Source of the DNA: Eubacteriales bacterium
GTDB taxonomy: Bacteria > Bacillota > Clostridia > Lachnospirales > Lachnospiraceae
Length of the DNA: 52,485 bases
Direction: 5' to 3'
Assembly: GCA_030524585.1 (NCBI GenBank)
Contig: JAUNGJ010000013.1
Span: 1-52,485 of the forward strand
In this document: piece by piece, positions 23,423 to 34,609 of the stretch
How positions within the stretch are numbered: the first letter of the stretch is position 1
Layout of the letters: the number at the start of each line of letters is the position of its first letter
Translations under genes and position numbers: made by a program
The notes under the pieces: model-generated
The model's database searches: none
What the model saw: the letters and a program-made list of their open reading frames with translations, nothing else
Told to the model about the DNA's origin: nothing

Positions 23423-24535
23423 TTATACAGCAGGTCCGGACATGGATAAACCGCTCTGTCTTTTGAACAGCAAAGAGAAATAGGAAGGATCGTTTATTCC
23501 TATCTGCTCTGCAACTTCATAAGTTAAGATGGCGTTATTTGCAAGAAGCTCTTTGGCCTTTTCTATTCTTAAAGTGGCTATGTATTCCGTGATGGAGTAG
23601 CCGCATTCCTTTCTAAAGGTACGGCTTAAGTAGGAACTGTTCATGTGGACATGCTGTGCTATATCCTCCAGCATTAAGCCTTCTGAGAGATGCTCTTTAA
23701 TATAACAGATCGCATCCTGAATATACGGGCTGTATTTTCGTTCAGAGGCGGTTAAGGTCTTCTGAGCATACAGCAAAAGCCGTTCTACAATTTCCTCCAA
23801 TTGAAAAATATCCGAGGAATGTCTGATGTTTATCAGAAATTCTTCAGGAGGCAAAATTATCTGATCCCTAGCGAGAACCCGGAAAACCAGGTAGTAAATG
23901 TGGGAGCAGACACTCTTGGTGTCGGCAGTGCTTACAAAATTGCTTTTCAGCTTCATAAACAATGCATTTACGATGGAAGACGCAGATGCGGAATTCCGCT
24001 GCAGGATGGAGATTTCCAGATCAAAAAGCGATAAGGTATCCTACACAGACAGAATATATTCGGCTTGTATGTTCTGGCTGTCAAAAATTGCAATGGATGA
24101 AGTTGAGTAGAAATTTAGCGACAGAGTATGGATGGCCTCAAAAGCGGCGGTGGGGAATTCTTCCGCACCGTGATGCAGTTGGCTAATGGCTGCCGATATT
24201 TTCATGGAATACAAATATCCCGGAATGTGAATGATTTCATTGCAGTTTTCTATTACAGGCTCCAGGTCGCTGTAGTAGTAAATGGACAGAATCAGGTTGT
24301 TGTAGCGAAAACAGTAGCTGTTAGTCTTCTGGCAGATAATCATATCTTTTAACTGATTGATCCGGGAGGATCCGTCCATTAACTGAAATGCGGCAATATA
24401 ATAATCATCCAGTGATATCTGATATTCTTCAAGTCTGGCAAGGATATCGGCGTCAACGCCGGAGCAGGTTAGATCCTGAAGCAGTTGGTCTTTTAAGAAA
24501 GCAAGCTTTGCCTTGTCTATGCGGCGCCGATCATT
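23423..24535 (-). pseudogene. Truncated AraC/YesN-type regulator with in-frame amber stop
   Basis: Both halves are in one frame, separated by a single TAG at 24041-24043 (complement CTA). The upstream half contains DKAKLAFLKDQLLQDL and the middle domain seen after the receiver in YesN-like response regulators. The downstream half continues as SLFDLEISILQRN and ends with two AraC helix-turn-helices (LEDIAQHVHMNSSYLSRTF and YEVAEQIGINDPSYFSLLF). CAG to TAG is the likely change. The receiver domain is missing: at about 24535 the reading frame runs into antisense of a sugar permease remnant. The C-terminus also ends in an atypical SMSGPAV. The gene is very probably inactive, though a separate 179-residue DNA-binding piece could in principle be made from 23962. 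Confidence 0.85.
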
Positions 24536-25068
24536 ATGGTTATATACACTTCTCTTTGTAATTATTCTGTTTCTACTAGTCCTGAACTGATCGGCCTGGA
24601 TAATTTTCATACTATTTTCCAGGATCCGGATTTTCAGATTTCCATTGTAAATAGATTGAAGTGGGTGCTGATTCAGAGTACCTTTCATGTAATACTGGGT
24701 CTGATCATGGCCCTAGTACTCAGGCGGAAACTTAAGGGCTGGAAAGTTGTCAGGACAGCCTATATGATTCCGAATATTATTCCAACTGCGGCAACGGGCG
24801 TTATGTTCTCGTTTCTTCTGAATCCGTCATTTGGGATTCTGAAGCCAGTTTATGAATTCTTCGGAATGGATGCAAGATATATTGTAAATTTGTTTGGAAC
24901 TTCAAAATATGCATTCTGGACGGTTACTGCAGCCTGGGTACTTTCACCAATAATTATTCGGCGTTATTTGCGGCTGTGGTAGTGACCGTGCTGCCGACGA
25001 TTCTTGTCTTCATTATTTTTCAGAAACAGGTAATGGAACGTCTGGCAGCCGGCGCAGTAAAGGGGTGA
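24536..25068 (+). pseudogene. Fused remnants of two sugar ABC transporter permeases
   Basis: The first part (24536-24982) reads like the middle of a MalF/UgpA-type permease: SPELIGLDNFHTIFQDPDF and then RTAYMIPNIIPTAATGVMFS. After a frame change near 24950 the sequence reads YSALFAAVVVTVLPT and IFQKQVMERLAAGAVKG, which is the C-terminal end of the partner MalG/UgpE-type permease. A deletion has thus joined two genes and removed the EAA loop of both. The start of the first gene is also missing. No intact binding protein or ATPase lies nearby. Confidence 0.8.
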
Positions 25069-25070
25069 TG

Positions 25071-25543
25071 CATATGAGAAGCGACAGAATGCCAATCTCT
25101 TCTGAATCTGCCGAATCTGAAAGAAACGAAATTATATATGGATGGGGAAGAATTTCGGATGGATGAAGGCAGCAGGTTATATAGAGCTGGAACGCAGGCA
25201 GAAGAATTATATGAACCATTTTTGGAGCGCTGCCGGGATAGAGATTGAAGGAGAGGGCAGCGAGGCCGTTCGGCAGGGAATACATTTTAATCTGTTTCAT
25301 AAAAATATGTATTTCCCATATGATGAAGAGTGTCAGATCCATTCGATGGACGATAGATTTATGATGCGTAAACCATGGGATGAAAGCAAAATCCCTGAGG
25401 AGAAGCGCGCATGGCTGTATGAGAACTATCATCCGCTGTTCATTATGCGGCACCGGATGTCCAAGCAGGCAGATGCGATTCTTGGAATGTATCTGCACAG
25501 TAATTTGTTTACGGAAGACAAAAAGAAACCTAAAAGAACTTGA
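25071..25543 (+). pseudogene. Remnant of GH65 disaccharide phosphorylase
   Basis: Two frames show pieces of family 65 glycoside hydrolases/phosphorylases. NLPNLKETKLYMDGEEF starts at 25105; in another frame AGYIELERRQKNYMNHFW and QGIHFNLFHKN follow, then a jump to the late region EEKRAWLYENYHPLFIMRH with KQADAILGMYLHSNLF. Most of the catalytic barrel, including the general acid region, is deleted. Together with the permease remnants and the broken regulator this is a decayed alpha-glucoside-type utilisation locus. Identity is by pattern memory; a profile search would settle it. Confidence 0.75.
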
Positions 25544-25586: not shown

Positions 25587-25624
25587 AAACCCTCACAGTG
25601 GCTGGCTGTGAGGGTTTCTTGTTG
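25587..25624 (+). terminator. Intrinsic terminator overlapping the element's left attachment repeat
   Basis: AAACCCTCACAG and CTGTGAGGGTTT form a perfect 12-bp stem around the loop TGGCTGG and run into CTTGTTGTT. The 26-bp attachment repeat begins at the last base of the stem. Confidence 0.85.
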
Positions 25625-25642
25625 TTATAGTTATCTAAAAGG
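25617..25642. repeat. Left attachment site repeat
   Basis: Perfect 26-bp direct repeat of 34345-34370, ending in TTATAGTTATCTAAAAGG. Flanking bases differ on both sides, which sets the limits. It starts at the foot of a terminator stem. Confidence 0.9.
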
Positions 25643-25744
25643 TATCTTTTAACCAATTTCATGCATATTTTCACCTATTTGAGTGCCAGAAAACGGCGTG
25701 TTTTCGTTTCTGCTTTTGCTCATTTTTCTGTTTGCGCAATTTTT

Positions 25745-25763
25745 TAATATCATTTTAATATCA
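25745..25763. repeat. Subterminal 19-bp repeat, left copy
   Basis: TAATATCATTTTAATATCA, identical to 34281-34299 near the right end. It overlaps the integrase stop codon. Candidate arm-type integrase or excisionase binding site. Confidence 0.6.
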
Positions 25764-26807
25764 AACCACCTTAGAAATTTTTCGCACAATATCCGTCTGT
25801 GAGGACGGAAATAAATGCGAATAGGTCTTAAGTGTAATGTCCGGTGACTCGTGGCCGAGTCTTTCAGCAACCAGAACCGGGTTGGCGCCCAGATTGATCA
25901 GCGTAGAAGCATGGGAGTGCCTGAGATCGTGGACACGTATTTTCTTAACACCTGCGCGCCTGATCCGGATATTGAAAGCGCTCCGGATATAATCTAACTG
26001 CTTGGGGAATAGCCTATCCTCCGGTAGCGGCTTGTACAGCCTGCTTACATAGTCCCGTACCTCTTCCGTGAGGAATACCGGTATATCAATAGTACGCTCT
26101 CCCTTTGCTGTTTTTGGTGGCTGTACGGTGTCTTTTCCGGTCAGGTGATAGAAAGTCTTGTTGATGGTTATCTGGTTATTCTTGAAATCAATGTCATTTA
26201 GGGTAAGGGCAAGCAGCTCTCCGGCCCTCATTCCGGTATAGTACAATAGTTCAAAGATGGTATAGTATTCGATATTGTCTTTGCATTCCTGAATGAATAA
26301 GGCATATTCTTCCGGTGTCCAGAAATCTACATTCTGCGTTTTGGTGCTTCCTATTGGCTTTTTGCAAGGGTTTTTCGGCAGCCCCAAGTATTCCACCGCG
26401 TAAGCGAAAACTGCCTTTAAATAGGTATTTGCGCTTCTTAAGTAGGTATCGCTGAGTCCCTTGTTCATCATTTCTATCTGCCAAGCTGAAATATCAGCCG
26501 GGGCAATGTCCGAGATCACCCGGTCTTTGAAGAATGGCAGGATATGACGGTCCATCATGTGGAAGCGGGTGTGAGCTGTGCTCTCCCTGATCCGGGGCGT
26601 GATGTACGCCTTATACTTCTCATAGAGAGCTTCAAAAGTAATGTCTGGATTCTTGGCAAACTGCTCCAGAAATTTCCGCTCCCAATCCTTGGCATCACGC
26701 TGCAGCTTAAATCCGCGCTTACACTTCTGCTTCTTCTGGCCGGTCCAATCGGTGTAGTAAAACCTACAATACCAAGTGCCGCGGGATTGGTCTTTATATG
26801 TCGGCAT
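25761..26807 (-). CDS. int: Tyrosine-type site-specific integrase
   Basis: A 348-residue integrase with an N-terminal AP2-like arm-binding domain (GTWYCRFYYTDWTGQKKQK), a SAM-like core-binding domain (about 57-160) and the catalytic domain. Active-site residues are Arg in YYTGMRAGE (about 191), HDLRHSHAS (about 293-300), LGHES and the nucleophile Tyr in TYSHLF (about 330). The size and order match phage/ICE integrases of Firmicutes. It sits about 120 bases inside the left attachment repeat and reads toward it, as usual. RBS AAAGGAGAT lies just upstream. Confidence 0.95.
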   Translation of the reverse strand: MPTYKDQSRGTWYCRFYYTDWTGQKKQKCKRGFKLQRDAKDWERKFLEQFAKNPDITFEALYEKYKAYITPRIRESTAHTRFHMMDRHILPFFKDRVISDIAPADISAWQIEMMNKGLSDTYLRSANTYLKAVFAYAVEYLGLPKNPCKKPIGSTKTQNVDFWTPEEYALFIQECKDNIEYYTIFELLYYTGMRAGELLALTLNDIDFKNNQITINKTFYHLTGKDTVQPPKTAKGERTIDIPVFLTEEVRDYVSRLYKPLPEDRLFPKQLDYIRSAFNIRIRRAGVKKIRVHDLRHSHASTLINLGANPVLVAERLGHESPDITLKTYSHLFPSSQTDIVRKISKVV

Positions 26808-26829
26808 AGCTATATCTCCTTTCGTCCGT

Positions 26830-26843
26830 GCCGGGCGGGCAGG
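26830..26843. repeat. Dispersed GCCGGGCGGGCAGG repeat, copy 1
   Basis: Exact 14-base copy in the integrase upstream region. The other exact copies are at 28081 and 30048, all in the same orientation, in an otherwise AT-rich element. Shorter matches occur at 31143 (GCCGGGCGG). Confidence 0.6.
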
Positions 26844-26856
26844 AAGTCAGGAGTAT

Positions 26857-27000
26857 TTGACATTTTCAGTATATTTGCTATAATATACTTAACAAGGGAG
26901 CCGGAAGGGAAAGACACTTCCCCGACCCGGCGAAATTTAATAGTTGCTATAAGAATAGCCGTTCCTAAACTTTGACGAGAGCAGGACGGCTATTTCTTAT
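26857..27000 (+). ncRNA. Candidate antisense RNA antitoxin of a type I toxin-antitoxin pair
   Basis: A near-consensus promoter, TTGACA (26857-26862), 16 bases, TATAAT (26879-26884), drives transcription from about 26891. No open frame with an RBS follows. About 60-110 bases later a hairpin pairs GAATAGCCGT with ACGGCTATTTC and runs into TTCTTAT. The RNA would be about 105 nt and would overlap the 3' end of the toxin frame on the other strand, the txpA/ratA and bsrG/SR4 arrangement. Confidence 0.6.
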
Positions 27001-27073
27001 GTGTATAATTCAGAATTGCTATAATCAGCAAGGCAACGCTCACTATCAGGCTTAACTCTTCGTATGTACTCAT
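26990..27073 (-). CDS. Holin-like small toxin (TxpA/BsrG-like)
   Basis: A 27-residue peptide beginning MSTYEELSLIVSVALL, with one hydrophobic helix and the basic tail THKK. The MSTYE start plus single helix is the hallmark of the putative holin-like toxin family, the toxic half of type I systems in Firmicutes prophages. GGAGGGTGGTGA is an exceptionally strong RBS. Its stop codon lies inside the terminator shared with the opposing antisense RNA. Too short for routine gene finders. Confidence 0.75.
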   Translation of the reverse strand: MSTYEELSLIVSVALLIIAILNYTHKK

Positions 27074-27342
27074 AATCATCACCACCCTCCGCAAGGTCTC
27101 GGATTGGGTGAAGCACGTCCCCCAGCTCCCTTATTAAACATATTATGTATTCAATATACGAATCCAAATTTGGATTGGTTTATTTGCTGGGTTTGACAGC
27201 GCAAAATTGCGTTCGTTGAAAGTTGTCGTGTTTAATTGCGCCCGTTTTTCGGATGATGTTAGTTTTTCCCAAAAGTGGGAGAAATTCGGAACATGAGGGA
27301 GTTTTCCCATTTTGCTGGGAATGGGGGATTATTCCCGTCCCC
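27074..27342. other. Intergenic stretch between toxin and repressor genes
   Basis: 269 bases with no convincing gene. It should contain the toxin promoter, read leftward. It holds a perfect 16-bp palindrome, AATCCAAATTTGGATT (27161-27176), a possible regulator site. GGGAGTTTTCCC and GGGAATGGGGGATTATTCCC-like inverted repeats at about 27298-27341 may terminate the repressor mRNA. Confidence 0.5.
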
Positions 27343-27744
27343 CTATTCGTCTTCTTTCTGGTAGTCTGGTATCTTGGTAAGATCTTTAGTATATGCGATA
27401 GCTTTTTCCTGGCCCGCATAGTTAAGATCGTGGAAGTATTTAACGATTCTATTATCGTTAGCCGCTTGCCTTGGGTTAATAGCTGAGTAATCTATTTCGT
27501 TATCTTCCATATCTTCAAATATTTCCCCAGGTGAAAATTCACTCCAATCAGTAACCAGCTCTCCTATTGTAACATCTAAGGCATTTGATATTTTTCGTAC
27601 TGTAGCAAGCTTTGGTTGTTCTATAGCTTTTTCATATTGAGCAACCGTTTGTTGTCTTATGCCCATTTTTTCACCAAGTTGTTTTTGTGACAACCCTTTT
27701 CTGATGCGCAATTCCTTAACTTTTTCTCCGAAGGTCAAAAACAT
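27343..27744 (-). CDS. XRE family (CI-like) repressor
   Basis: The product is about 133 residues, with an N-terminal helix-turn-helix (LRIRKGLSQKQLGEKMGIRQ, then TVAQYEKAIEQPK) and a C-terminal tail of about 65 residues without a known peptidase motif. It is leftward and divergent from a second small XRE gene, the classic immunity-switch layout. The start at 27744 has GGGGGGTG very close; a TTG two codons later, with better spacing, is a possible alternative. The longer frame to 27822 runs across the operator region and is rejected. Confidence 0.88.
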   Translation of the reverse strand: MFLTFGEKVKELRIRKGLSQKQLGEKMGIRQQTVAQYEKAIEQPKLATVRKISNALDVTIGELVTDWSEFSPGEIFEDMEDNEIDYSAINPRQAANDNRIVKYFHDLNYAGQEKAIAYTKDLTKIPDYQKEDE

Positions 27745-27790
27745 CACCCCCCTTTTGTAAGTATACTTTACCACATTTTTTTGCAAAAGT

Positions 27791-27866
27791 ACAGTAAAAT
27801 TACTGTTCTTTTGTATTGACACAATAAAAACACTGTGCTAATATTAAAATACAGTAAAAATACTGT
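27791..27866. promoter_or_regulatory. Three-site operator and divergent promoters of the immunity switch
   Basis: Three 16-base sites are centred on ACAGTA-N4-TACTGT: 27791-27806 (perfect halves), 27821-27836 (ACAATA and CACTGT, degenerate) and 27851-27866 (perfect halves). Their starts are exactly 30 bases apart, about three helical turns, placing them on one face. The rightward promoter TTGACA (27816-27821), 17 bases, TAATAT (27839-27844) contains the middle site, and its start overlaps the third. The leftward repressor promoter (TATACT on the minus strand, about 27760) lies next to the first. Confidence 0.8.
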
Positions 27867-27883
27867 ATCTAGGAGGTGAGAAC

Positions 27884-28081
27884 ATGAGAATTGACAGAAT
27901 TAAGCTTGTCACTGAGCTGATGCACAGAGACATGACACAAACGCAGCTTGCGGAAAAGTCAGGAGTCAGCAGGGTAACCATCAACTGTATTAAGGGTGGC
28001 AAATCCTGCAGCGATGAAGTAGGACGCAAGATTGCCGGAGCTTTAGGAGTTCCGATTGAACAGTTACTAGAAAACAATTAG
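27884..28081 (+). CDS. Small XRE family (Cro-like) DNA-binding protein
   Basis: This 65-residue protein is one helix-turn-helix domain (MTQTQLAEKSGVSRVTINCI) plus a dimerisation tail ending VPIEQLLEN. RBS AGGAGGTGA precedes the ATG. It is the first rightward gene after the triple operator and probably plays the Cro part against the repressor at 27343. Confidence 0.9.
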   Translation: MRIDRIKLVTELMHRDMTQTQLAEKSGVSRVTINCIKGGKSCSDEVGRKIAGALGVPIEQLLENN

Positions 28082-28094
28082 CCGGGCGGGCAGG
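28081..28094. repeat. Dispersed GCCGGGCGGGCAGG repeat, copy 2
   Basis: Exact copy directly after the Cro-like stop codon and 12 bases before the next gene. Confidence 0.6.
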
Positions 28095-28105
28095 GAGAAA
28101 AAGGA

Positions 28106-28438
28106 ATGTGCGACGGTCGCACAAGGAAAATGAGTTTGTGCATTGAGGAACAAGAGACACATATAAATTTTATGCGTGGAGATGCTAGAGCGGTAATTTA
28201 CACATCAGACACCACAATGATGACAAAATTCAACAAGCTAGTTGAATTACAAGACACAGAATGGAAATTAGAGCGAACATCTACGTTGGCAAATGGGGAA
28301 GTGATTGGAAAAACATATTCATGTCCAATACAGCTTTTATCATTTCGCTCTAAACGGGTTAAACGAAATTATTCAGAGGAAGAGCGGAAAGCGATAGCGG
28401 ACAGATTCCACGGATCACATTTGAAGGGCATTGTTTGA
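28106..28438 (+). CDS. Hypothetical element protein, 110 aa
   Basis: No family was recognised with certainty. The sequence has an acidic N-terminal half (EEQETHINF, then AVIYTSDTTMMTKFNKL) and a basic C-terminal region (RSKRVKRNYSEEERKAIADR), suggesting a nucleic-acid-contacting tail. Start is ATG at 28106 with GGGAG 8 bases upstream; an ATG at 28130 is possible. It sits in the early rightward operon of the element. Confidence 0.65.
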   Translation: MCDGRTRKMSLCIEEQETHINFMRGDARAVIYTSDTTMMTKFNKLVELQDTEWKLERTSTLANGEVIGKTYSCPIQLLSFRSKRVKRNYSEEERKAIADRFHGSHLKGIV

Positions 28439-28457
28439 CAAGGAAAGGAGAGATCAA

Positions 28458-28640
28458 ATGAAACAATATGTAACAGCGCAGGAGATCAGCGAGACCTTAG
28501 GCGTATCGCTTACTAAGAGCTATGCGATCATCCGGGAGCTCAACGAAGAGTTGCAGAGTAAGGGGTATCTGACCGTCAGAGGGAAGACAAGCCGGGCGTT
28601 CTTCAATGAGAAGTGGTATGGCGGGCAGCAGGCAGGATAG
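28458..28640 (+). CDS. Small helix-turn-helix protein (excisionase/regulator-like)
   Basis: This 60-residue protein has a winged-helix-type N-terminus, TAQEISETLGVSLTKSYAII, followed by LTVRGKTSRAFFNEKWYG. Proteins of this size and motif in integrative elements act as excisionases or small regulators. The ATG at 28458 follows AAAGGAGAGA. No xis candidate lies closer to the integrase. Confidence 0.7.
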   Translation: MKQYVTAQEISETLGVSLTKSYAIIRELNEELQSKGYLTVRGKTSRAFFNEKWYGGQQAG

Positions 28641-28658
28641 AAAGGAGATTATAAAATT

Positions 28659-28829
28659 ATGAAAAATTACATGATAGCGATATCAATATCACAATACGTA
28701 AATGATGCTGCGGATCCAAGAGTATACTTTGATACATATAAAGAAGCTTCTGAAGCTGCACGCCCTTGGGTGGAGCAAGGGTATAAAGTAATTATTACTA
28801 CAATGGAGTATGAAGAAGATGGAGAATAA
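28659..28829 (+). CDS. Small acidic protein, 56 aa
   Basis: A short open frame with a strong RBS (AAAGGAGA, 28641-28648). It begins MKNYMIAISISQYVNDAA and ends EYEEDGE. No family recognised. It overlaps the next gene by 11 bases, as for a coupled operon gene. Confidence 0.6.
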   Translation: MKNYMIAISISQYVNDAADPRVYFDTYKEASEAARPWVEQGYKVIITTMEYEEDGE

Positions 28830-29772
28830 AGAAATAAGGAAACCGAGCTTTCTCGTTTACTATGACAATGAAGTGGTTGTATTAAGACTTTCAGACGATG
28901 AAGCAGGAAAGCTATTTAAATCACTGTTTCCATACGGAAAAAAGGAAATTCGACCGGATTTTGATAACAGCCCGGCGCTTGCTATGGCTTTTGATATTTT
29001 AAGCATGGCAATAGACAGAGATAAGCAAAAATATGTGAAGAAGTGTGAAAAAAATAGAGAAAATGGAAAGAAAGGGGGGCGTCCAAAGAAAAACCAAACG
29101 GATATTGAAGAAACCGAACGGTTTAATTCAAAGCCCAAAAAAGCCGATAGGGATAAGGATAAGGGTATGGAGAAGGAAAAGGATACGGGTAATATTCCTT
29201 TTACTTCTCTTACCCTTAAGGAGGGGGAAACGCTACCGCCTCCTGCTGACGCCGGCGGAGCGTCCCCCTTTACCTTTATGGATTGTCAGGAGTGTGCAGA
29301 GCAAGGAAAGGTCAATATTTCTGCTGATGGAATCGCTGCTTTCTTTGAACGCATGGAAAAAGACGGGTGGAAAATAAAAGGTACTCCAGTAACCAATCTG
29401 TTGCTGGCTATGCGTGGGTTTGCAAAGAACCATAAGCAATACCAGGCGCAAGCAGTACAAGAGAAGCCAGACCACGAAGACGATGTGACTTCGAAAAAGA
29501 AAAATTTTAAACATTTTAAGCTATGGCTCAAATATCATGGCTATGACCGTAACTATGAAGGTCATGGGGATTTTGAAGAAGAGATTACACTAAGCGAAAA
29601 CGTTATAGAGGAGGTTTTTAAAGTAGATAACTCTGCGGAATCAATGTATAACATAAACGAAAGGTTGCTTGAAAGTGGATTCAACAAAGAAGATATAAGA
29701 CCACTTATGAAGTTATTTAATATGTGGAGACGGGGGGAAGATTATGACGTTAAAGGACACAGAACGGTTTGA
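28819..29772 (+). CDS. DUF6291-type phage protein (possible replication organiser)
   Basis: The 317-residue protein has an N-terminal DUF6291 domain (about 1-90; FLVYYDNEVVVLRLSDDEAG, then RDKQKYVKKCEKNRENGKKG). A low-complexity linker rich in Lys, Glu and Pro follows, then a C-terminal globular part. The GGRPKK patch is probably DNA-binding. Genes of this type occupy the replication position of many Firmicutes prophages; that role is inferred from position. No helicase, primase or loader is encoded beside it, so host or helper enzymes would be needed. Confidence 0.75.
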   Translation: MENKEIRKPSFLVYYDNEVVVLRLSDDEAGKLFKSLFPYGKKEIRPDFDNSPALAMAFDILSMAIDRDKQKYVKKCEKNRENGKKGGRPKKNQTDIEETERFNSKPKKADRDKDKGMEKEKDTGNIPFTSLTLKEGETLPPPADAGGASPFTFMDCQECAEQGKVNISADGIAAFFERMEKDGWKIKGTPVTNLLLAMRGFAKNHKQYQAQAVQEKPDHEDDVTSKKKNFKHFKLWLKYHGYDRNYEGHGDFEEEITLSENVIEEVFKVDNSAESMYNINERLLESGFNKEDIRPLMKLFNMWRRGEDYDVKGHRTV

Positions 29773-29998
29773 CAAGATTTTTAATAGTGGCAAATATTTT
29801 CATGATGTTTCAGATTCCGATTTTTTGAGATCTGCCTGTGAGTGTGAAAAGTTATATGATTATATGCAGAGCGAGGGTGTACCGATTTATGAAGAGCTTG
29901 ATATAAAAAAGTATATGCATTTTGCTTATTGGCTTGGAGCGATTAACGAAAAAGAGTGTGCACTGGCAGCAATGAAGAAAGGAGATATATATGAATAA
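29744..29998 (+). CDS. Hypothetical element protein, 84 aa
   Basis: The start overlaps the end of the preceding gene by 29 bases and has GGGGGGAAG just upstream. The product is acidic, with EKLYDYMQSEGVPIYEEL and a Trp-Leu-Gly helix. No family recognised. Probably co-translated with the DUF6291 protein. Confidence 0.6.
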   Translation: MTLKDTERFDKIFNSGKYFHDVSDSDFLRSACECEKLYDYMQSEGVPIYEELDIKKYMHFAYWLGAINEKECALAAMKKGDIYE

Positions 29999-30047
29999 AT
30001 CAGGATATTGAGGTAAAGGAAACACCAATAAAATAGCCCCATATCAA

Positions 30048-30061
30048 GCCGGGCGGGCAGG
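30048..30061. repeat. Dispersed GCCGGGCGGGCAGG repeat, copy 3
   Basis: Exact copy about 85 bases before the gene at 30146, in the same orientation as the copies at 26830 and 28081. Confidence 0.6.
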
Positions 30062-30145
30062 ATATGAGGCGGCACAGCCGGAGCCATGCGGAAAAAATCC
30101 AAATACATAATAGCATGGATTTCCGGGGAAAGGAAAGAGAAAATT

Positions 30146-30394
30146 ATGAAAAATATATGTGGGCAGGAAATGCCTTTGAATCCATATCATAAGAATCCGA
30201 CTATGGAATTGCTGGGACATCAATGCGCGATAGAACCGTTTTGGTACAATGATGAAGTGAAAAAGGAAATAGAAGAGATTTCAGAAGGAAGACCGTTCTC
30301 ATTTACACTAGAAGTGGCCAGAGATATATTCATGCTTGGTTATATACATGGTAAACGGGCGGAAAGAGCTAGGAGAAAGAAAAGAACAACTTAA
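30146..30394 (+). CDS. Hypothetical element protein, 82 aa
   Basis: The ATG at 30146 follows GGAAAGAGA; longer in-frame starts have no RBS. The sequence ends in a basic helix (HGKRAERARRKKR) and contains FTLEVARDIFMLGYIHG. No family recognised. Downstream, 30395-30504 has no gene, only a GC-rich inverted repeat near 30438-30460. Confidence 0.6.
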   Translation: MKNICGQEMPLNPYHKNPTMELLGHQCAIEPFWYNDEVKKEIEEISEGRPFSFTLEVARDIFMLGYIHGKRAERARRKKRTT

Positions 30395-30504
30395 GACGGT
30401 TTGCAGATACTACAAAGATATAATCTACCTGAGACCGCGCGCCCCGGCGTTACAGGGGCAATTGCTACGATCAACTTACAAAACAAATGAATGGAAGGTG
30501 CAAA

Positions 30505-30642
30505 ATGAGAGAGATATACAGGGAGCGTATTAATAGAATACTGGACACGCTGGATGACGAGAAAGTGCGCGGTATTTATATTTTTATATCCGCTTATACA
30601 GAAAATAGCGGAGAGGTTGAACAAAATGAGCGTGAAGATTAA
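30505..30642 (+). CDS. Small hypothetical protein, 45 aa
   Basis: Short frame with GGAAGGTG upstream, starting MREIYRERINRILDTLDD. It overlaps the next gene by 17 bases, suggesting coupling. No family recognised. Confidence 0.5.
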   Translation: MREIYRERINRILDTLDDEKVRGIYIFISAYTENSGEVEQNERED

Positions 30643-30814
30643 ATTATCCTACAATACAGATGAAGAGCTGGCCGGAGTGATCCGGCTGCTCTCTCCGGCG
30701 CTTAAATCCTACAAGATGCAGCCCCCAAAAGGACGGTATAATAGGGCATATATGGACTTAAAGCCTGGTTTTTTTGTGCGTTCTGGCAATGAAAAAGGGA
30801 AGAAAAGCCCGTAA
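30626..30814 (+). CDS. Small hypothetical protein, 62 aa
   Basis: Starts at 30626 behind GAGAGG within the preceding frame. The sequence SVKIKLSYNTDEELAGVIRL followed by KGRYNRAYMDLK is the type of small conserved protein seen in Lachnospiraceae integrative elements. Function unknown. Confidence 0.6.
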   Translation: MSVKIKLSYNTDEELAGVIRLLSPALKSYKMQPPKGRYNRAYMDLKPGFFVRSGNEKGKKSP

Positions 30815-30829
30815 AATATGGATTTTCGC

Positions 30830-30980
30830 TTGCATATCCCTATATATTTTGTTACAATTATTATAGAGCAAATAGAATATAAGTACCGCACTGGTAGACT
30901 CCAGATCAGTGTAAGCCTTAAGGCGTGGGAATGTTTACTGTCGCGAAATGCGACTTTTGAGCGTTCCCGTGCCTTTTTTA
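30830..30980 (+). ncRNA. Candidate structured RNA before the capsid genes
   Basis: A promoter, TTGCAT (30830-30835), 17 bases, TACAAT (30853-30858), gives a start near 30865. The following 110 bases have no good open frame but fold locally: CTGG-CCAG within CACTG-CAGTG, then AAGGC-GGGAA pairing with TTCCC-GCCTT around an inner TCGC/GCGA hairpin, ending in TTTTTTA. The last hairpin is an intrinsic terminator. It could be an independent small RNA, or a leader/attenuator controlling entry into the scaffold-capsid operon. Confidence 0.5.
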
Positions 30981-31083
30981 TTTGTTCTATGTGTACTTTA
31001 ATTTTCTGGGTAACCCTGGGCACGGTGTAAAACTGCCCAATCAAATAAGCCGACCGGGCGTTAAACGGGGAAAGGAAAAAGAT

Positions 31084-31563
31084 ATGGAAAATATGAGCAA
31101 TTTCATGGGAACTGCATCCATCGGACATAATGCAGGGAATCAGCCGGGCGGTGATCCAGCCGGGCGAACCTTCACACAGGAAGAGGTCAACGAGATTGTA
31201 CAGAAAAGACTTGCAAAGGAAAGGGAAAAGCTTTCAAAGGTCTTTCAAGAAGAGAAGCAACTAAGCGAACTCGAAGAGAGGGAACAGAAACTTGAACAGA
31301 GGGAGCTGCGAGCTGGGGCAGCGGATGAACTGAAACGCCTTGGTTATCCGGAAGGTTTGACAGAGCTGCTTGATTACAGCAATCAGGAAAACTTCCAGAA
31401 GAGCCTTGCCACGGTGACGTCTGTTTTCGGCTCTGCACTGTGGGAAAGACGGAGAATTGACGCGCGACAATCCACGCCTTTAGAATCCTACTACAGAGCG
31501 CCGGAGCAGCCTAAGCCCGGATCAGAGAATGACCCAATCGCTAGATCCTTCGGACTTTATTAG
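31084..31563 (+). CDS. Phage scaffolding protein, DUF4355 family
   Basis: The 159-residue protein starts at 31084 behind GGAAAGGAAAAAG. The core FTQEEVNEIVQKRLAKEREK, followed by a charged coiled coil of about 50 residues, is the DUF4355 scaffold signature. The C-terminal SENDPIARSFGLY resembles the capsid-contacting tail. Scaffolds guide assembly of HK97-fold shells and then leave. It lies 16 bases before the capsid gene, the standard order. At 159 residues it is somewhat short. Confidence 0.85.
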   Translation: MENMSNFMGTASIGHNAGNQPGGDPAGRTFTQEEVNEIVQKRLAKEREKLSKVFQEEKQLSELEEREQKLEQRELRAGAADELKRLGYPEGLTELLDYSNQENFQKSLATVTSVFGSALWERRRIDARQSTPLESYYRAPEQPKPGSENDPIARSFGLY

Positions 31564-31579
31564 GAAAAGAGGTTAGGAA

Positions 31580-32419
31580 ATGGCTATTGATTTAGTAACA
31601 AAATTTTTACCGTACACAGAGGCATTATTCGCGAGGGAGAGTGTGAAATCGCTTCTTACTTGCAATGACTTCAACTGGACGGGCGCACACACTATTAAAA
31701 TATACAAAGTGAAGACAGCACAGATGAATGACTATGACAGACCGGGCACCGGCGCACACAGATCGCGTTATGGTGAGATTCAATCTCTGGACGCGACAAC
31801 GGAAGAATTCACGCTCAGGAAAGACCGTTCTTTTACGTTTGCCATTGATGCGCTTGACGAGGATGAGACACAGCAGCAGCTTGCAGCAGCTTCCGCACTT
31901 GCAAGACAGCAGCGGTATGTAGTCATCCCGGAAGTTGATACTTATACTTACGGCGTAATGTGTGAGGATGCAGGCTTTAAGCCAGCAGCTATTACGCTTA
32001 CAAAAGAAAATATCTGTACGGAGATTATGAAAGCAAATAATAAGCTGGATAATGCAGAGGTTCCGGAGTCAAACAGACAGCTTGTCGTTACCCCGGACAC
32101 TTATTTACTGCTGAAGCAGTGCAAAGATATTGTGATGGAAACAGATATTGGTAATGACCTGAGGTTAAAGGGCGTTGTTGCTACAGTAGACGGGGCGAAC
32201 GTCATCAAGGTCCCAGCTCCACGCCTGCCTGCAGACTTTGGGTTTATGCTGTGCCACCCAACTGCAACGGTAGCGCCGACGAAGTTGGAAAGCTATAAAA
32301 TCCACCACAACCCGCCGTTCATCAACGGCGATCTGGTGGAGGGGCGTATTGCCTATGATGCGTTTGTACCATCAACCAGAAATCAGGCGATCTATTACCA
32401 AGCATTAACAAATGCCTAA
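31580..32419 (+). CDS. HK97-fold major capsid protein
   Basis: The 279-residue protein has the P22-coat/HK97-fold pattern: an N-terminal helix and E-loop region (TLRKDRSFTFAIDALDEDET), a spine-helix segment (QLAAASALARQQRYVVIPEV), RQLVVTPDTYLLLKQC, and the C-terminal YKIHHNPPFINGDLVEGRI, then AYDAFV. No N-terminal delta domain of the HK97 gp5 type and no protease gene are seen, consistent with scaffold-driven assembly without maturation cleavage. It is full length and intact. No portal or terminase gene accompanies it, which is unusual. Confidence 0.88.
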   Translation: MAIDLVTKFLPYTEALFARESVKSLLTCNDFNWTGAHTIKIYKVKTAQMNDYDRPGTGAHRSRYGEIQSLDATTEEFTLRKDRSFTFAIDALDEDETQQQLAAASALARQQRYVVIPEVDTYTYGVMCEDAGFKPAAITLTKENICTEIMKANNKLDNAEVPESNRQLVVTPDTYLLLKQCKDIVMETDIGNDLRLKGVVATVDGANVIKVPAPRLPADFGFMLCHPTATVAPTKLESYKIHHNPPFINGDLVEGRIAYDAFVPSTRNQAIYYQALTNA

Positions 32420-32424
32420 TCCAA

Positions 32425-32475
32425 TAATTTGATACAGTGCCCCGAGCTTTTCCTTCCTTGAAGCCCGGGGTATTG
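32425..32475 (+). other. Hairpin after the capsid gene
   Basis: TGCCCCG and CGGGGTA, with inner AGCTT/GAAGC pairing, form a stable hairpin 10-60 bases after the capsid stop. There is no T-run, so it more likely stabilises the capsid mRNA end or reduces read-through than terminates fully. Confidence 0.45.
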
Positions 32476-32496
32476 TGGTAAAAAGGGGGTTATATC

Positions 32497-32733
32497 ATGA
32501 GCATTCGCTTGAGACTCAGCAGCCCCACGGAAGTAAGACGGGCGCTTGCACGTGTGGCAAATATGGCTGTAAACGGCGAGATCGACACAAAGACCGCTAA
32601 CACTATCATACTTGCTTGTAATGCCATTCTGGGCGCTATACGGACGGACGAGCAGAGCAAGCGCATTGAAGAGCTTGAGCGTCTTCTGATAGAAGCGGAA
32701 GAGAGCCGGAAGGAGGGCGAGCAATGGATGTGA
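32497..32733 (+). CDS. Small phage-type protein, 78 aa
   Basis: A helical, charged protein: LSSPTEVRRALARVANM, then TANTIILACNAILGAIRTDEQ and a Glu-rich coiled tail. Similar small proteins occur beside terminase genes in Firmicutes phages, but no function is assigned here. RBS AAAGGGGGTT precedes the ATG. It overlaps the next gene by 10 bases. Confidence 0.65.
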   Translation: MSIRLRLSSPTEVRRALARVANMAVNGEIDTKTANTIILACNAILGAIRTDEQSKRIEELERLLIEAEESRKEGEQWM

Positions 32734-33161
32734 AGACACTGGAGAAGAGGATTAAGAAGCTGAATATCTCCATGAGGGACGAAGTAAGCTATACAATCGG
32801 AGACAGCTCCGTGACAACAACGATGAGTGTGTACCTGGATTGTCTAAGGCACGGATTGCCCGTTAGTATGTACCACCTGAAGCACGGGCGCCCGGAGCGG
32901 TGCGCTGCTGCCTACATAAAAACGCTTACTGAGGCGGTAGATGAAGAGCTGGTAGCCGAGAGTATGCCGGAAGAAGCGGCGCCGGATATACCTGACACTC
33001 CAGAGATTCCGAAGGAAGTCCCAGAAGCACCAGCAGAGAAAAGCACACCGGAAATCCCGGAGATGCCACCCATCGCACAGAATGAGCCTTATATTTATAT
33101 GGAGTTCGACGAAAGAGAGTCTTTGTGTGACTATGCACGTATTATAAGAGGGCTGTTTTAA
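32724..33161 (+). CDS. Hypothetical element protein with Pro/Glu-rich tail
   Basis: This 145-residue protein has a globular N-terminal part (1-75, TIGDSSVTTTMSVYLDCLRHG) and a repetitive Pro-Glu-Ile linker of about 45 residues. It ends in YIYMEFDERESLCDYARII. No family recognised. The start is coupled to the preceding gene. Confidence 0.6.
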   Translation: MDVKTLEKRIKKLNISMRDEVSYTIGDSSVTTTMSVYLDCLRHGLPVSMYHLKHGRPERCAAAYIKTLTEAVDEELVAESMPEEAAPDIPDTPEIPKEVPEAPAEKSTPEIPEMPPIAQNEPYIYMEFDERESLCDYARIIRGLF

Positions 33162-33182
33162 TAATTCCAGAGGTGAAATCAC

Positions 33183-34136
33183 ATGACGAATGAGCAGTTA
33201 ATTGCCCGGATCAGAGCCGGAGAGGACGAAGCTGAGAATATGCTTGCCCTCTGGCAGCGGAACAAAGGATTTATAGCGAAGATGGCAAAACGGTATCAGG
33301 GATATGCTGAGATGGACGATCTGATGCAGGAGGGGTATCTGGGACTCTGTGAAGCAGTGCGTCATTATGAAGCAGATCAGGGGGCTTCTTTCATCCACTA
33401 TGCCGCCTTTTGGATTCAGCAGGTAATGAGACGGTACATAGATAACTGTAGCGGTGTTGTTCGGCTCCCGGTGCACGCAAGGGAGTGGATTAGCAAATAT
33501 AACAAAGCTGTGAGGGAATACCGCCAATATTACGGAGAGAGCCCTACAGAAGCGGCTCTGTGCTCGCTTTTGGGCGTTGGACGGGAAAAGCTTCATGTAA
33601 TACAAGAAAGCGTTCAAATGGGGCAGATACGAAGCCTGAGCGAGCCGACAGTGGGAGAAGATGACCTGACTTTGTCTGACACGGTAGCTTCCGGCGAAGA
33701 CTTAGAAGCGGACGTTATGCAGGCGCTTGACCGGGAGAACATGAAGCGTGAGCTGTGGATTGCGGTGAATGAACTGCCGGGGGACCTTTCTACAGTAATC
33801 CGCGTCAGGTACCAGGAAGGGAAGACGCATAAAGCTGTTGGCCAGATTCTTGGTGTGAGCCGGAATAGAGCAGCGCAACTTGAGAAAGACGCACTTAGAA
33901 AGCTCCGGCTTCTGGGGAAGAGTAAAAAGTTCCGCTGCTATTACGAGGAATATCTGTCTGCTGCCCCAATTCGTCATGTAGGTGTAGAAAGATTTTTGAA
34001 TACCTGGACAAGTGAAGTTGAACGGGAGGCGCTGCGACAATTGGAAGGTACAAGGAGAGGGGACCGCTGGATAAAGCACATAGTGAGAAGAGCAGCAAGG
34101 GAAGGCGCGGAAGTGCCGGAAGAACTGGAGATATGA
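33183..34136 (+). CDS. Element-encoded sigma-70 family sigma factor
   Basis: A 317-residue sigma factor with region 2 (MDDLMQEGYLGLCEAVRHYE and FIHYAAFWIQQVMRRYI), region 3 (about 95-140, SPTEAALCSLLGVGREKL) and region 4 (KAVGQILGVSRNRAAQLEK, about 210-240). A C-terminal basic extension of about 80 residues follows. Regions 2.3-2.4 are intact, so it should direct RNA polymerase to specific promoters. RBS AGAGGTGA precedes the ATG. Sigma factors at the right end of phage genomes control late genes; here the targets could be the capsid operon or a helper phage. Confidence 0.88.
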   Translation: MTNEQLIARIRAGEDEAENMLALWQRNKGFIAKMAKRYQGYAEMDDLMQEGYLGLCEAVRHYEADQGASFIHYAAFWIQQVMRRYIDNCSGVVRLPVHAREWISKYNKAVREYRQYYGESPTEAALCSLLGVGREKLHVIQESVQMGQIRSLSEPTVGEDDLTLSDTVASGEDLEADVMQALDRENMKRELWIAVNELPGDLSTVIRVRYQEGKTHKAVGQILGVSRNRAAQLEKDALRKLRLLGKSKKFRCYYEEYLSAAPIRHVGVERFLNTWTSEVEREALRQLEGTRRGDRWIKHIVRRAAREGAEVPEELEI

Positions 34137-34294
34137 CAATGAAGAACCAGGAAGGCTATTACGATCCAACTGCAGAAAGGGCGATCCGGCGAGCCAGCCG
34201 AAAGAGAAGAAATACAGCAAAATACCGCACTCTTACCTATAAGCTCGGTGAGATGCCGGAATTTCGGCGGCTTCAAAAAATAATATCATTTTAA
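34133..34294 (+). CDS. Small basic protein, 53 aa
   Basis: The ATG overlaps the sigma factor stop by 4 bases (ATGA), a sign of coupling, and CTGGAG lies just upstream. The product is basic, with RAIRRASRKRRNTAKYR. No family recognised; it could be an accessory to the sigma factor or a DNA-binding peptide. Last gene of the element. Confidence 0.6.
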   Translation: MTMKNQEGYYDPTAERAIRRASRKRRNTAKYRTLTYKLGEMPEFRRLQKIISF

Positions 34295-34299
34295 TATCA
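34281..34299. repeat. Subterminal 19-bp repeat, right copy
   Basis: Identical 19-bp copy of 25745-25763 in the same orientation, 45 bases before the right attachment repeat and overlapping the end of the last small gene. Confidence 0.6.
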
Positions 34300-34344
34300 T
34301 ACAGGACAGAAGAAAGCCCCATAGTGGCTGGCTACAGGGCTTTC

Positions 34345-34370
34345 TCTTGTTGTTATAGTTATCTAAAAGG
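34345..34370. repeat. Right attachment site repeat
   Basis: Second perfect copy of the 26-bp repeat. It is preceded by its own hairpin (34311-34345, AGAAAGCCC with GGGCTTTCT around the same TGGCTGG loop), so the similarity between the element ends extends, in diverged form, about 30 bases further upstream. Confidence 0.9.
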
Positions 34371-34609
34371 AATGAGAGTAAAGTGTGGCACCGTAAAAGG
34401 TCTTATTTACAGTGCGTCAACTTAATGAGGGGGGATAGTTGTTTGTCTATCAACTATCTGATACATAGTATAAGGGATAAATATGACAGAATTATGTTCT
34501 TTCTCTAAAAGAAAAAGAAAATTTCTTAAGAAGTTCTTTAGAAAACATGAAATAAATTTATAAATTGTCCGGAAAGATGGTATAATGAACACATAGCGAG
34601 GTGATACAG
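34371..34609 (+). promoter_or_regulatory. Chromosomal gap with Rrf2 gene promoter
   Basis: The 239 bases after the right attachment site hold no gene. An inverted repeat, GATAGTTG and CAACTATC (34434-34458), forms an 8-bp stem. An extended -10 promoter, TGGTATAAT (34578-34586), lies about 24 bases before the Rrf2 start and gives a very short leader. The rest is AT-rich without recognisable structure. Confidence 0.55.

What the first reader, a model, noticed from the sequence alone, without database searches (positions are those of the whole stretch)
25617..34370. Satellite-like element that carries only a scaffold and a major capsid protein
Seen: an 8.7-kb unit with 26-bp att repeats, integrase, repressor/Cro switch, sigma factor, and an intact DUF4355 scaffold plus HK97-fold capsid gene. 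No portal, terminase, protease, connector or tail gene exists inside the att sites. Known capsid-forming satellites (cf-PICIs) carry a fuller packaging set, while others only remodel a helper capsid with small proteins (P4 Sid, SaPI CpmB, PLE TcaP). A shell-only satellite would be a distinct strategy: supplying its own coat for a smaller or incompatible head while borrowing portal and packaging, or making a DNA-free compartment or decoy that blocks a helper phage.
Basis: partly seen in the sequence, partly recalled or inferred. Interest (0 to 1): 0.88.

Follow-up and report, generated by a model that had tools for sequence, protein, structure and literature searches.

The report
Shell-only phage satellite with leader RNA
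In a gut bacterium sits a small hitchhiking DNA element that carries the two genes for a virus shell but none recognised for filling or tailing it; close relatives recur across many gut bacteria, which suggests a parasite that builds its own coat and borrows the rest from a helper virus.

Summary
An 8.73-kb insertion with exact 26-bp att repeats carries integrase, cI/cro switch, DUF6291, scaffold, full-length HK97-type capsid protein and sigma factor; no portal, terminase, connector or tail family was matched. A congener has the site uninterrupted. The int-cI-cro-rep-scaffold-capsid unit recurs in Lachnospiraceae, Oscillospiraceae and Erysipelotrichaceae; its capsid proteins form one group of 110 tree rows, 2 beside portal/TerL. 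Eleven of 42 viral contigs checked look like closed 7.6-10.4 kb circles. The capsid gene is under purifying selection. New here: before the scaffold lies a covarying structured RNA without Rfam match, with terminator and competing strand as in an attenuator. It also marks satellites of the same chassis carrying a tape measure or unknown genes instead, so it seems to head a swappable virion-part slot. One shell-carrying relative sits inside the capsid gene of a resident phage. Most likely a PICI-like satellite that builds its own small shell on helper portal, terminase and tail (inferred; no particle seen). Precedents: SaPIbov5 Ccm, cf-PICIs, helper-embedded PICIs with a capsid copy, PLE chimeric tails. 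A new variant of a known kind.

The parts
25617..25642 (+). attL core, 26 bp exact (29 nt with one mismatch)
   Evidence: empty site in congener
34345..34370 (+). attR core
   Evidence: empty site in congener
25745..25766 (+). inner 22-nt direct repeat near attL (possible integrase arm site)
   Evidence: family D3; function inferred
34281..34302 (+). inner 22-nt direct repeat near attR, 95% identical
   Evidence: family D3
25761..26807 (-). tyrosine integrase, 348 aa
   Evidence: PF00589 1.6e-24; phrog_1 1.5e-79
27343..27822 (-). cI-type repressor (true start probably internal)
27884..28081 (+). cro-like regulator, divergent from cI
28106..28438 (+). orf110, phrog_1709, unknown
28431..28640 (+). 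orf69, small chassis gene, phrog_989, weak winged-helix matches
   Evidence: cluster 11, 22 loci
28659..28829 (+). orf56, unknown
28810..29772 (+). DUF6291 protein, at the place of the replication gene (primase/helicase in many relatives)
29744..29998 (+). orf84, unknown
30086..30394 (+). orf102, unknown
30554..30814 (+). o86, small conserved chassis gene directly before the RNA (true start probably near 30627)
   Evidence: no match in the phage collection at E 0.01
30850..30858 (+). extended -10-like promoter (TGTTACAAT; often TGGTATAAT in relatives)
   Evidence: read from aligned copies; the consensus scan does not list this hexamer
30881..30981 (+). structured leader RNA core: hairpin, terminator hairpin, U-tract; competing strands 30915-30917 / 30922-30924 / 30971-30973
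   Evidence: no Rfam match
31084..31563 (+). scaffold protein (DUF4355 family), 159 aa
31580..32419 (+). major capsid protein, HK97 type, 279 aa
32497..32733 (+). o78, small chassis gene, kept with different cargos
   Evidence: no match in the phage collection at E 0.01
32724..33161 (+). orf145, unknown
33183..34136 (+). sigma-70-type factor, last large gene of the unit
34133..34294 (+). orf53, phrog_6568, unknown

Best explanation
This is a PICI-like phage satellite. Shown by sequence: it entered as an 8.73-kb insertion with its own integrase, has a lysogeny-type switch and a probable replication gene, and carries one intact virion-part module, scaffold plus full-length capsid protein. Shown in relatives: circular forms and purifying selection. 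Inferred: on induction, with a helper phage in the cell, it excises and replicates; the leader RNA holds the shell genes off by termination until a helper- or satellite-made signal (perhaps with the satellite's sigma factor) lets transcription through; scaffold and capsid protein assemble a small shell on the helper's portal; helper terminase fills it with about 9 kb of satellite DNA; helper connectors and tail complete it. The shell pair is one filling of a slot that other satellites of the same chassis fill with a tape-measure module.
For: Insertion with att repeats and uninterrupted site in congener G402. Relatives: clear direct repeats 9,185 bp (L037) and 9,059 bp (L040) apart, weaker ones in L035 and L038, none found in L041 and L042 (6 loci examined). 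65 loci with an integrase, or an unlabelled gene of about 490 aa that I took for a recombinase, 3.4-6.7 kb before the capsid gene. 11 of 42 viral contigs with terminal repeats; in 6 of the 11 sigma and integrase meet across the joined ends. One side of the capsid tree has 110 rows, support 99, 2 of them with portal/TerL. 69 upstream ORFs: the 25 commonest PHROGs of 102 are primase, helicase or unnamed; Prim-Pol, D5, VapE and AAA_25 domains. MCP dN/dS 0.033-0.14 in 13 pairs. The capsid protein covers phage capsids over 97% of its length, keeps N-terminal helix, two-stranded loop and long helix in the model, and has its own scaffold, unlike Ccm. RNA: 19 pairs, 92.3% paired, 180 double-change cells against 57.5 shuffled, 0 of 500; competing strand complementary in 53 of 57 rows. 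SPP1-type portal in 5 of 11 satellite genomes against 67 of 386 others, one-sided p 0.032. L128 lies in the capsid gene of a resident phage, and L245 (integrase 88% identical to L128's) next to the same capsid end in a record with an SPP1-type portal.
Against: No particle, transduction or induction data. The host assembly (91.8% complete) shows no SPP1-type portal and one weak phrog_2 hit, so no resident helper is visible; but that search tool also missed the window's own scaffold, so its nulls are weak. Circles show excision or concatemers, not packaging. Portal/TerL absence in relatives rests on profiles seeded from two phages, which also left L128 unlabelled although phage genes surround it, and on the top 25 of 102 PHROG families. 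The relatives were picked by likeness to this capsid (best 80 kept per scan), so the tree is weighted to satellites; it is rooted at the midpoint. [quoted passage not shown] Building on a foreign portal is a demanding fit. The helper association is weak.
Confidence: 0.55

Rival explanations
1. Ccm-like remodelling: the satellite capsid protein co-assembles with the helper's capsid protein (for example as pentamers) and forces a smaller mixed head, with the satellite scaffold steering the mix.
For: SaPIbov5 Ccm does this with a capsid-protein homologue and no packaging genes (PMC8569155, passages). The capsid family is shared with whole phages.
Against: phi12 and SaPIbov5 have no separate scaffold, Ccm lacks a long extended N-arm and cannot form shells alone. 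Here the capsid protein is full length and comes with its own scaffold in most relatives shown. Purifying selection would fit either model.
Confidence: 0.2
2. Captured backup copy: the satellite lineage picked up helper capsid and scaffold genes because it tends to sit in helper late genes; the copy stands in for an interrupted helper gene and is not used to make a special shell.
For: PMC10111431 proposes this for helper-embedded PICIs and shows a capsid homologue in 11capE, itself in a capsid gene. L128 carries scaffold and capsid and lies in a capsid gene.
Against: In L128 the interrupted capsid is only about 25% identical to the carried family, a poor backup. Among 159 loci the script found a capsid piece beside the integrase only in L128 (L245 was not in that set). 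The carried capsids form an old group of their own, and the window site is intergenic.
Confidence: 0.12
3. Interference only: the shell proteins tie up helper portal or scaffold, or form empty shells, to block the helper; the satellite DNA leaves in ordinary helper heads.
For: Satellites often block helpers; nothing in the sequence shows packaging of this element.
Against: Some relatives add connectors (12 loci), MuF (L062, L081) or a tape measure (L068, L135) beside the same shell, which points to working virions. The capsid protein is conserved over its length.
Confidence: 0.07
4. The leader RNA is a trans-acting small RNA against helper transcripts (as SviR of PLE), not an attenuator. (A rival for the RNA part only.)
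For: Promoter-like -10 and terminator of its own; PLEs carry a conserved small RNA that binds helper tail transcripts (PMC12987554). The competing helix is short: three pairs hold, the fourth fails in 28 of 57 rows, and the count of pairs with double changes does not exceed shuffles (53 of 500 reach it).
Against: 100 of 102 hits lie 423-894 nt before the capsid gene; the other two are a second copy in L149 and L160, where the gene runs over the contig end. Three strands change together, which predicts a cis switch.
Confidence: 0.25
5. Remnant of a prophage that lost everything but scaffold and capsid genes.
For: The nearest capsid relatives outside the group are whole phages.
Against: att ends bound the unit and the congener site is empty. 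Same content in many hosts, circles, dN/dS 0.03-0.14, one old group.
Confidence: 0.03

Closest known systems
SaPIbov5 with Ccm (Staphylococcus PICI; PMC8569155, passages)
   Same: PICI-type satellite with a capsid-protein homologue that makes small heads with helper parts; portal comes from the helper.
   Different: Ccm takes only the pentamers of a helper-built head and cannot make shells alone; no separate scaffold. Here a full-length capsid protein plus scaffold is carried.
Helper-embedded PICI 11capE (E. coli; PMC10111431, passages)
   Same: Satellite with an internal capsid-gene homologue, integrated in a capsid gene of its helper; L128 here is laid out alike.
   Different: Enterobacterial, lambda-type genes; the window element sits in an intergenic site and carries a scaffold-capsid pair of its own group.
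Capsid-forming PICIs (cf-PICIs; as described in PMC10690885 and PMC12409344, passages)
   Same: PICI with own capsid genes and borrowed tail; cf-PICI capsids also form clades of their own (PMC11389934, passages).
   Different: cf-PICIs carry portal, protease, connectors, both terminase subunits and HNH; here only scaffold and capsid. L151 and L153 show that portal and TerL can occur beside this capsid group.
PLE satellites with own TMP, TAC and BhuB (PMC12987554, passages)
   Same: Satellite replaces chosen virion parts with its own and makes chimeric virions; has a conserved regulatory RNA. Kin of this element (L231, L232, L274) carry a tape measure, with a tail chaperone in L231.
   Different: PLE replaces tail parts and uses helper capsid protein; the window element carries the head shell. 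Different hosts and genes.
MulchRoom and MiniFlayer (Streptomyces satellites; PMC10690885, passages)
   Same: Satellite-encoded head; MulchRoom with a tail like its helper's.
   Different: Full packaging set with portal and both terminase subunits; key replication genes absent.
Geobacillus phage phiOH2 and Streptococcus prophages
   Same: Related scaffold-capsid pair (capsid 38-43% identical).
   Different: Whole phages with terminase, portal, MuF and tail; no leader RNA in the stretches L031 and L032.

Membership tests
PICI (phage-inducible chromosomal island) | int at one end with own att site | tested here: met
PICI (phage-inducible chromosomal island) | divergent repressor/activator switch | tested here: met
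   cI(-)/cro(+)
PICI (phage-inducible chromosomal island) | replication module (primase/rep) | tested here: inconclusive
   window has DUF6291 at that place, with weak primosomal PHROG matches; relatives have primase/helicase
PICI (phage-inducible chromosomal island) | induced and mobilised by a helper phage | not testable with these tools
   no experiment; no resident helper portal seen
PICI (phage-inducible chromosomal island) | redirects helper packaging (TerS, Rpp or cos/pac) | tested here: inconclusive
   no TerS family matched; o78, o86 and orf145 are of unknown function
cf-PICI | own capsid protein and head-assembly genes | tested here: met
cf-PICI | own portal, connectors, TerS and TerL | tested here: not met
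Ccm-type SaPI | capsid homologue without long N-arm, no separate scaffold | tested here: not met
   full-length capsid protein and a scaffold
Ccm-type SaPI | capsid homologue unable to form a shell alone | not testable with these tools
   needs expression
Helper-embedded PICI | integrated in a helper late gene | tested here: not met
   window site is intergenic; met by the relative L128
Complete or decayed prophage | portal/terminase/tail genes or their debris within the att sites | tested here: not met
Known Rfam RNA family (leader RNA) | match at or above a curated score | tested here: not met
   window; 15 loci
Transcription attenuator | terminator hairpin with a competing upstream strand | tested here: met
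   competing helix of three pairs; regulation itself not tested; the simple terminator scan (loops of 3-8 only) does not list this hairpin

The most novel reading that the evidence does not exclude
A modular satellite chassis (int, cI/cro, orf69, rep, o86, leader RNA, slot, o78, sigma) spread through gut Clostridia, in which an undescribed attenuator RNA heads a slot holding one size-setting virion part: scaffold plus capsid (head size), or tape measure with or without chaperone (tail length), or others not yet recognised. The satellite swaps in that part and borrows the rest, making chimeric virions of its own dimensions; some members sit in the helper's own capsid gene.
Probability: 0.5. Interest if true: 0.9.

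Novelty: new variant of a known kind. Interest (0 to 1): 0.79.

Why it matters
It fills the gap between satellites that tweak a helper's head with small proteins and those that carry a whole head. If right, a capsid shell can be a swappable part placed on a foreign portal, and a satellite lineage can change which part it replaces while keeping its chassis. The structured RNA gives a searchable marker for such satellites even when the cargo is unrecognisable, and a testable switch that could couple helper presence to virion-part expression. Hosts include many gut Clostridia, where I found little in print on satellites.

Tried and rejected
Prophage remnant: rejected (empty site, recurrence, purifying selection). 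Decoy or empty compartment: kept as a minor rival only. Rfam match for the leader RNA: none in the window or in 15 related loci at gathering scores (which found skipping-rope in L127 and DUF3800-VII in L148). Particle evidence through faecal phage records: the sigma factor matched 31 records whose name begins with 'Bacteriophage'. Five were fetched; none had an RNA match; four have the sigma gene next to a 520-600 aa gene, which I read as bacterial rpoD operons, and the fifth showed a sigma and a weak cI match only. So this gives no support. That such records come from virus-like particles was not shown; PMC8361208 was seen only as a listing with the start of its abstract.

An outer helix round the RNA core is clear in the window (16 bp) but only in some rows: mean score 16.2 against 13.2 shuffled; not built on. 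The two ends of the L128 element share 18 of 24 bases, no better than shuffles (mean of best 16.0, highest 18 of 30 runs); the case for insertion there rests on the two capsid pieces. L236 (RNA score 38) has no satellite chassis and is probably a chance hit. L239 has portal and capsid genes beside a pattern match; not used. o78 and o86 have no match in the phage collection. The o78 fold and the fold search of the capsid model were not run. A3 and A4 are alignments of unrelated proteins, made only to batch a scan. Row left out before a count: G107 (partial capsid match, residues 125-275; no SPP1 portal listed) was not among the 11 satellite genomes; with it 5 of 12. In one search the first 14 of 49 capsid pairs were printed, one saturated.

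Full report
What is there. The element runs from 25617 to 34370, bounded by an exact 26-bp repeat (29 nt with one mismatch) 8,728 bp apart. Leftward: integrase and cI-type repressor. Rightward: cro, small genes, DUF6291, a small conserved gene (o86), a structured RNA, scaffold, capsid protein, o78, an unknown gene, a sigma factor and a last small gene. No scanned ORF other than scaffold and capsid matched a virion or packaging family above noise. ARAGORN finds no tRNA in the window, so the site is not a tRNA gene.

Insertion site. In another species of the genus (G402) the two flanks joined at the att core match one uninterrupted stretch: 149 alignment columns at 92%, query positions 28-173 of 173. 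On the right the likeness continues into the next genes; on the left it covers only the last 59 bases or so before the core. The site is a terminator followed by an intergenic repeat with further copies in the genus, so a paralogous copy cannot be wholly excluded on the left side.

It recurs. Of 397 genomes sampled in the family, 40 hold a capsid relative at E <= 0.001; 11 of them, the window's own included, have a near full-length match at 59-100% identity. Around the close ones the order integrase, cI, cro, replication gene, o86, scaffold, capsid, with or without o78, sigma and orf53, returns in whole or part. Repeats bound the unit clearly in L037 (26 nt, 9,185 bp) and L040 (58 nt, 9,059 bp), weakly in L035 and L038, and were not found in L041 and L042. 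A scan of one genome per species gave 174 confirmed relatives, of which the best 80 were fetched; a scan of viral contigs gave 272, of which the best 79 were fetched. Hosts by record title and tree tags include Lachnospiraceae, Oscillospiraceae, Clostridium and Erysipelotrichaceae.

Gene content of relatives. Of 152 loci with a capsid ORF of 230 aa or more, 26 have a portal or TerL within 9 kb. The capsid tree (144 rows, midpoint root) has a satellite side of 110 rows (SH-aLRT 99) and a phage side of 34. On the satellite side 2 rows have portal/TerL (L151, L153); 15 have connectors, MuF or tape measure; 43 have an integrase close upstream and no virion-gene hit; 50 have no hit but also no recognised integrase within reach. 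Limits: loci were chosen by likeness to this capsid; the profiles were seeded from two phages and left L128 unlabelled although phage genes surround it; of 102 families matched by 69 upstream ORFs only the 25 commonest are shown, and these are primases, helicases and unnamed ones, though one of the 69 (L081) resembles MuF by BLAST. Of 38 downstream ORFs one matched a terminase large subunit and one a tail-completion family among the 25 families shown of 46.

Circles. Of 42 viral contigs tested, 11 carry direct terminal repeats of 28-127 nt, five of them 77 nt, as assemblers leave on closed circles (general knowledge). Unique lengths are 7.6-10.4 kb. In six (L133, L134, L137, L152, L160, L179) the sigma gene is followed by the integrase gene with nothing over 60 aa between, so the two ends of the integrated form are joined. 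In L149 two copies of the RNA with equal scores lie 8,513 bp apart, as in a head-to-tail dimer. This shows excision or concatemers, not packaging.

Selection. Pairwise dN/dS (Nei-Gojobori, my script) is 0.033-0.14 for the capsid gene in 13 unsaturated pairs of 14 printed, out of 49 found; 0.06-0.68 for the scaffold in 14 printed of 15; 0.11-0.21 for sigma in 5; 0.03-0.14 for o78 in 9 unsaturated of 12.

Capsid protein. It aligns over 97% of its length with capsid proteins of Streptococcus prophages (up to 43%) and phiOH2 (38%), and the family profile matches a solved major capsid protein (8e16, E 2.7e-9). The AlphaFold2 model (mean pLDDT 78.7, pTM 0.76) shows an N-terminal helix, a two-stranded loop, a long helix at 99-129 and a mixed domain, in the order of the HK97 fold (naming these parts is mine, and the fold search could not be run). 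It is not a shortened form.

The leader RNA. A segment before the scaffold folds strongly. Iterated profile searches from the window copy, one strand searched, gave 102 hits in 101 of 159 loci; 100 lie 423-894 nt before the capsid gene, the others being a second copy in L149 and L160, where the gene runs over the contig end. In 57 aligned copies the consensus has 19 pairs in 3 helices; 92.3% of cells pair against 77.8% shuffled, 180 cells have changes on both sides against 57.5, and 0 of 500 shuffles reach either; sliding the partner by 1-3 columns drops pairing to 41-52%. A short upstream strand (GCC) can pair with the strand (GGC) that also forms the base of the terminator hairpin. The upstream strand is fully complementary in 53 of 57 rows and the terminator base in 57 of 57, and triplets change together (GCG/CGC/GCG, GTC/GAC/GTC, GCT/AGC/GCT, GGC/GCC/GGT); random re-pairing gives 44.6 on average and never 53 in 2,000 tries, relatedness not controlled. 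For that helix alone 10 cells have double changes against 2.4 (0 of 500 as high), but the number of pairs with a double change does not stand out (53 of 500), and a fourth pair fails in 28 of 57 rows. This is the layout of a transcription attenuator. Rfam 15 has no match.

The RNA marks a wider chassis. Covariance model R1 hits 7 of 48 loci that were mainly phage-side: the window, L151, L162, L163, L159, L146, L155. Of the 26 portal/TerL loci one (L151) has the RNA by profile search. In genomes R1 matched 15 of 397 in the family and 21 of 392 in the order, 30 distinct places. By my reading: 16 of 30 are followed by scaffold and/or capsid genes (several of these are copies of sequences the model was built from); 3 by a tape-measure protein, not always as the first gene (L231 with tail chaperone, L232, L274); 1 by a LysM protein that PHROGs calls endolysin (L280); 6 by genes of unknown kind or by sigma alone within a similar chassis; 4 are at contig ends or lack most of the chassis. 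Of the 11 capsid genomes, G369, G047 and G259 were not hit by R1 at that threshold.

Inside a phage capsid gene. In L128 (capsid 71% identical to the window's) a 99-aa piece of another capsid protein ends just before the integrase, and a 209-aa piece follows the sigma gene; both match the phage capsid references, the second at 25-26%. Further phage-size genes flank them, among them a 1,267-aa one with a weak tape-measure match. In L245, which has the chassis and RNA but an unknown cargo, an equivalent 100-aa piece (56% identical to L128's) lies beside an integrase 88% identical to L128's, and its 53-kb record holds an SPP1-type portal match over the cut-off; L128's record gave no SPP1-type portal and neither record a phrog_2 match. 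So some members sit in the capsid gene of a resident phage, like helper-embedded PICIs. The window element does not.

How it most likely works. Shown: mobile, integrated, circular in relatives, selected, shell genes behind a conserved RNA. Inferred: helper dependence, an own shell on a helper portal, packaging of about 9 kb, and release of the RNA switch. A weak sign for a helper of the matching type: SPP1-type portal genes occur in 5 of 11 satellite genomes (G369, G047, G264, G183, G214) against 67 of 386 others, one-sided p 0.032, not corrected for genome size or kinship. The window's own genome shows none, in an assembly 91.8% complete and with a tool that missed the window's own scaffold.

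Compared with what is known. Papers were seen as passages found by search, none in full: PMC8569155, PMC10690885, PMC12409344, PMC12987554, PMC11389934, PMC10111431, PMC12946183 (no help). [quoted passage not shown] PMC12987554 reports PLEs with own tape measure, chaperone and baseplate hub, says no other satellites had been reported to encode a tape measure, and shows putative ones in some cf-PICIs. PMC10111431 describes a PICI in a helper capsid gene that itself holds a capsid homologue. Nine paper searches listed, as far as titles and abstract starts show, no satellite with scaffold and capsid protein only, nor this RNA; preprints and most subscription journals are not in the library, so absence from print is not shown.

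Noticed in passing
L128 2832-3131 and 12582-13211; L245 (reverse strand) 100-aa ORF beside int: Satellites of this chassis inserted in the capsid gene of a resident phage; L128 itself carries scaffold and capsid genes.
   Followed up: partly
L231 5118-9026; L232 5461-9010; L274 3662-7760: Satellites of the same chassis and leader RNA that carry a tape-measure protein (1042, 575 and 875 aa) instead of scaffold and capsid; L231 also has a tail assembly chaperone.
   Followed up: partly
L233 6601-7906, L277 8098-8748, L245 200-844, L234 8140-8739, L235 8119-8835: Unknown proteins of about 200-240 aa in the slot after the leader RNA; those of L277 and L245 are related to one in L233.
   Followed up: partly
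L062/L033 and L081; L068/L034 and L135; L132, L074, L079, L080: Relatives that add MuF, a tape measure, or head-tail connectors next to the scaffold-capsid pair.
   Followed up: partly
L151, L153: Rare members of the capsid group beside TerL and portal, so a fuller packaging set can sit with the same shell.
   Followed up: partly
L149 1920-2034 and 10433-10547: Two copies of the leader RNA 8,513 bp apart with equal scores, as in a head-to-tail dimer of the element.
   Followed up: no
L127 7002-7076; L148 1285-1365: Rfam skipping-rope RNA after the capsid gene, and DUF3800-VII RNA, in satellite contigs.
   Followed up: no
window 23423-25543: Left of attL: short ORFs that by eye look like pieces of AraC-type and permease genes, and a GH65 piece (25142-25543, Pfam 8.7e-10; the permease-like ORF has no Pfam match), perhaps decayed genes.
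   Followed up: no
window 34380-34560: The right flank of the att site belongs to an intergenic repeat with further copies in this and congener genomes.
   Followed up: partly
L234 7242-8126: The sigma gene of this satellite is split by an in-frame stop.
   Followed up: no
L286-L289 (MT836790, MT836986, MT839319, MT839976): Public 'Bacteriophage sp.' faecal records that look like bacterial rpoD operons.
   Followed up: partly
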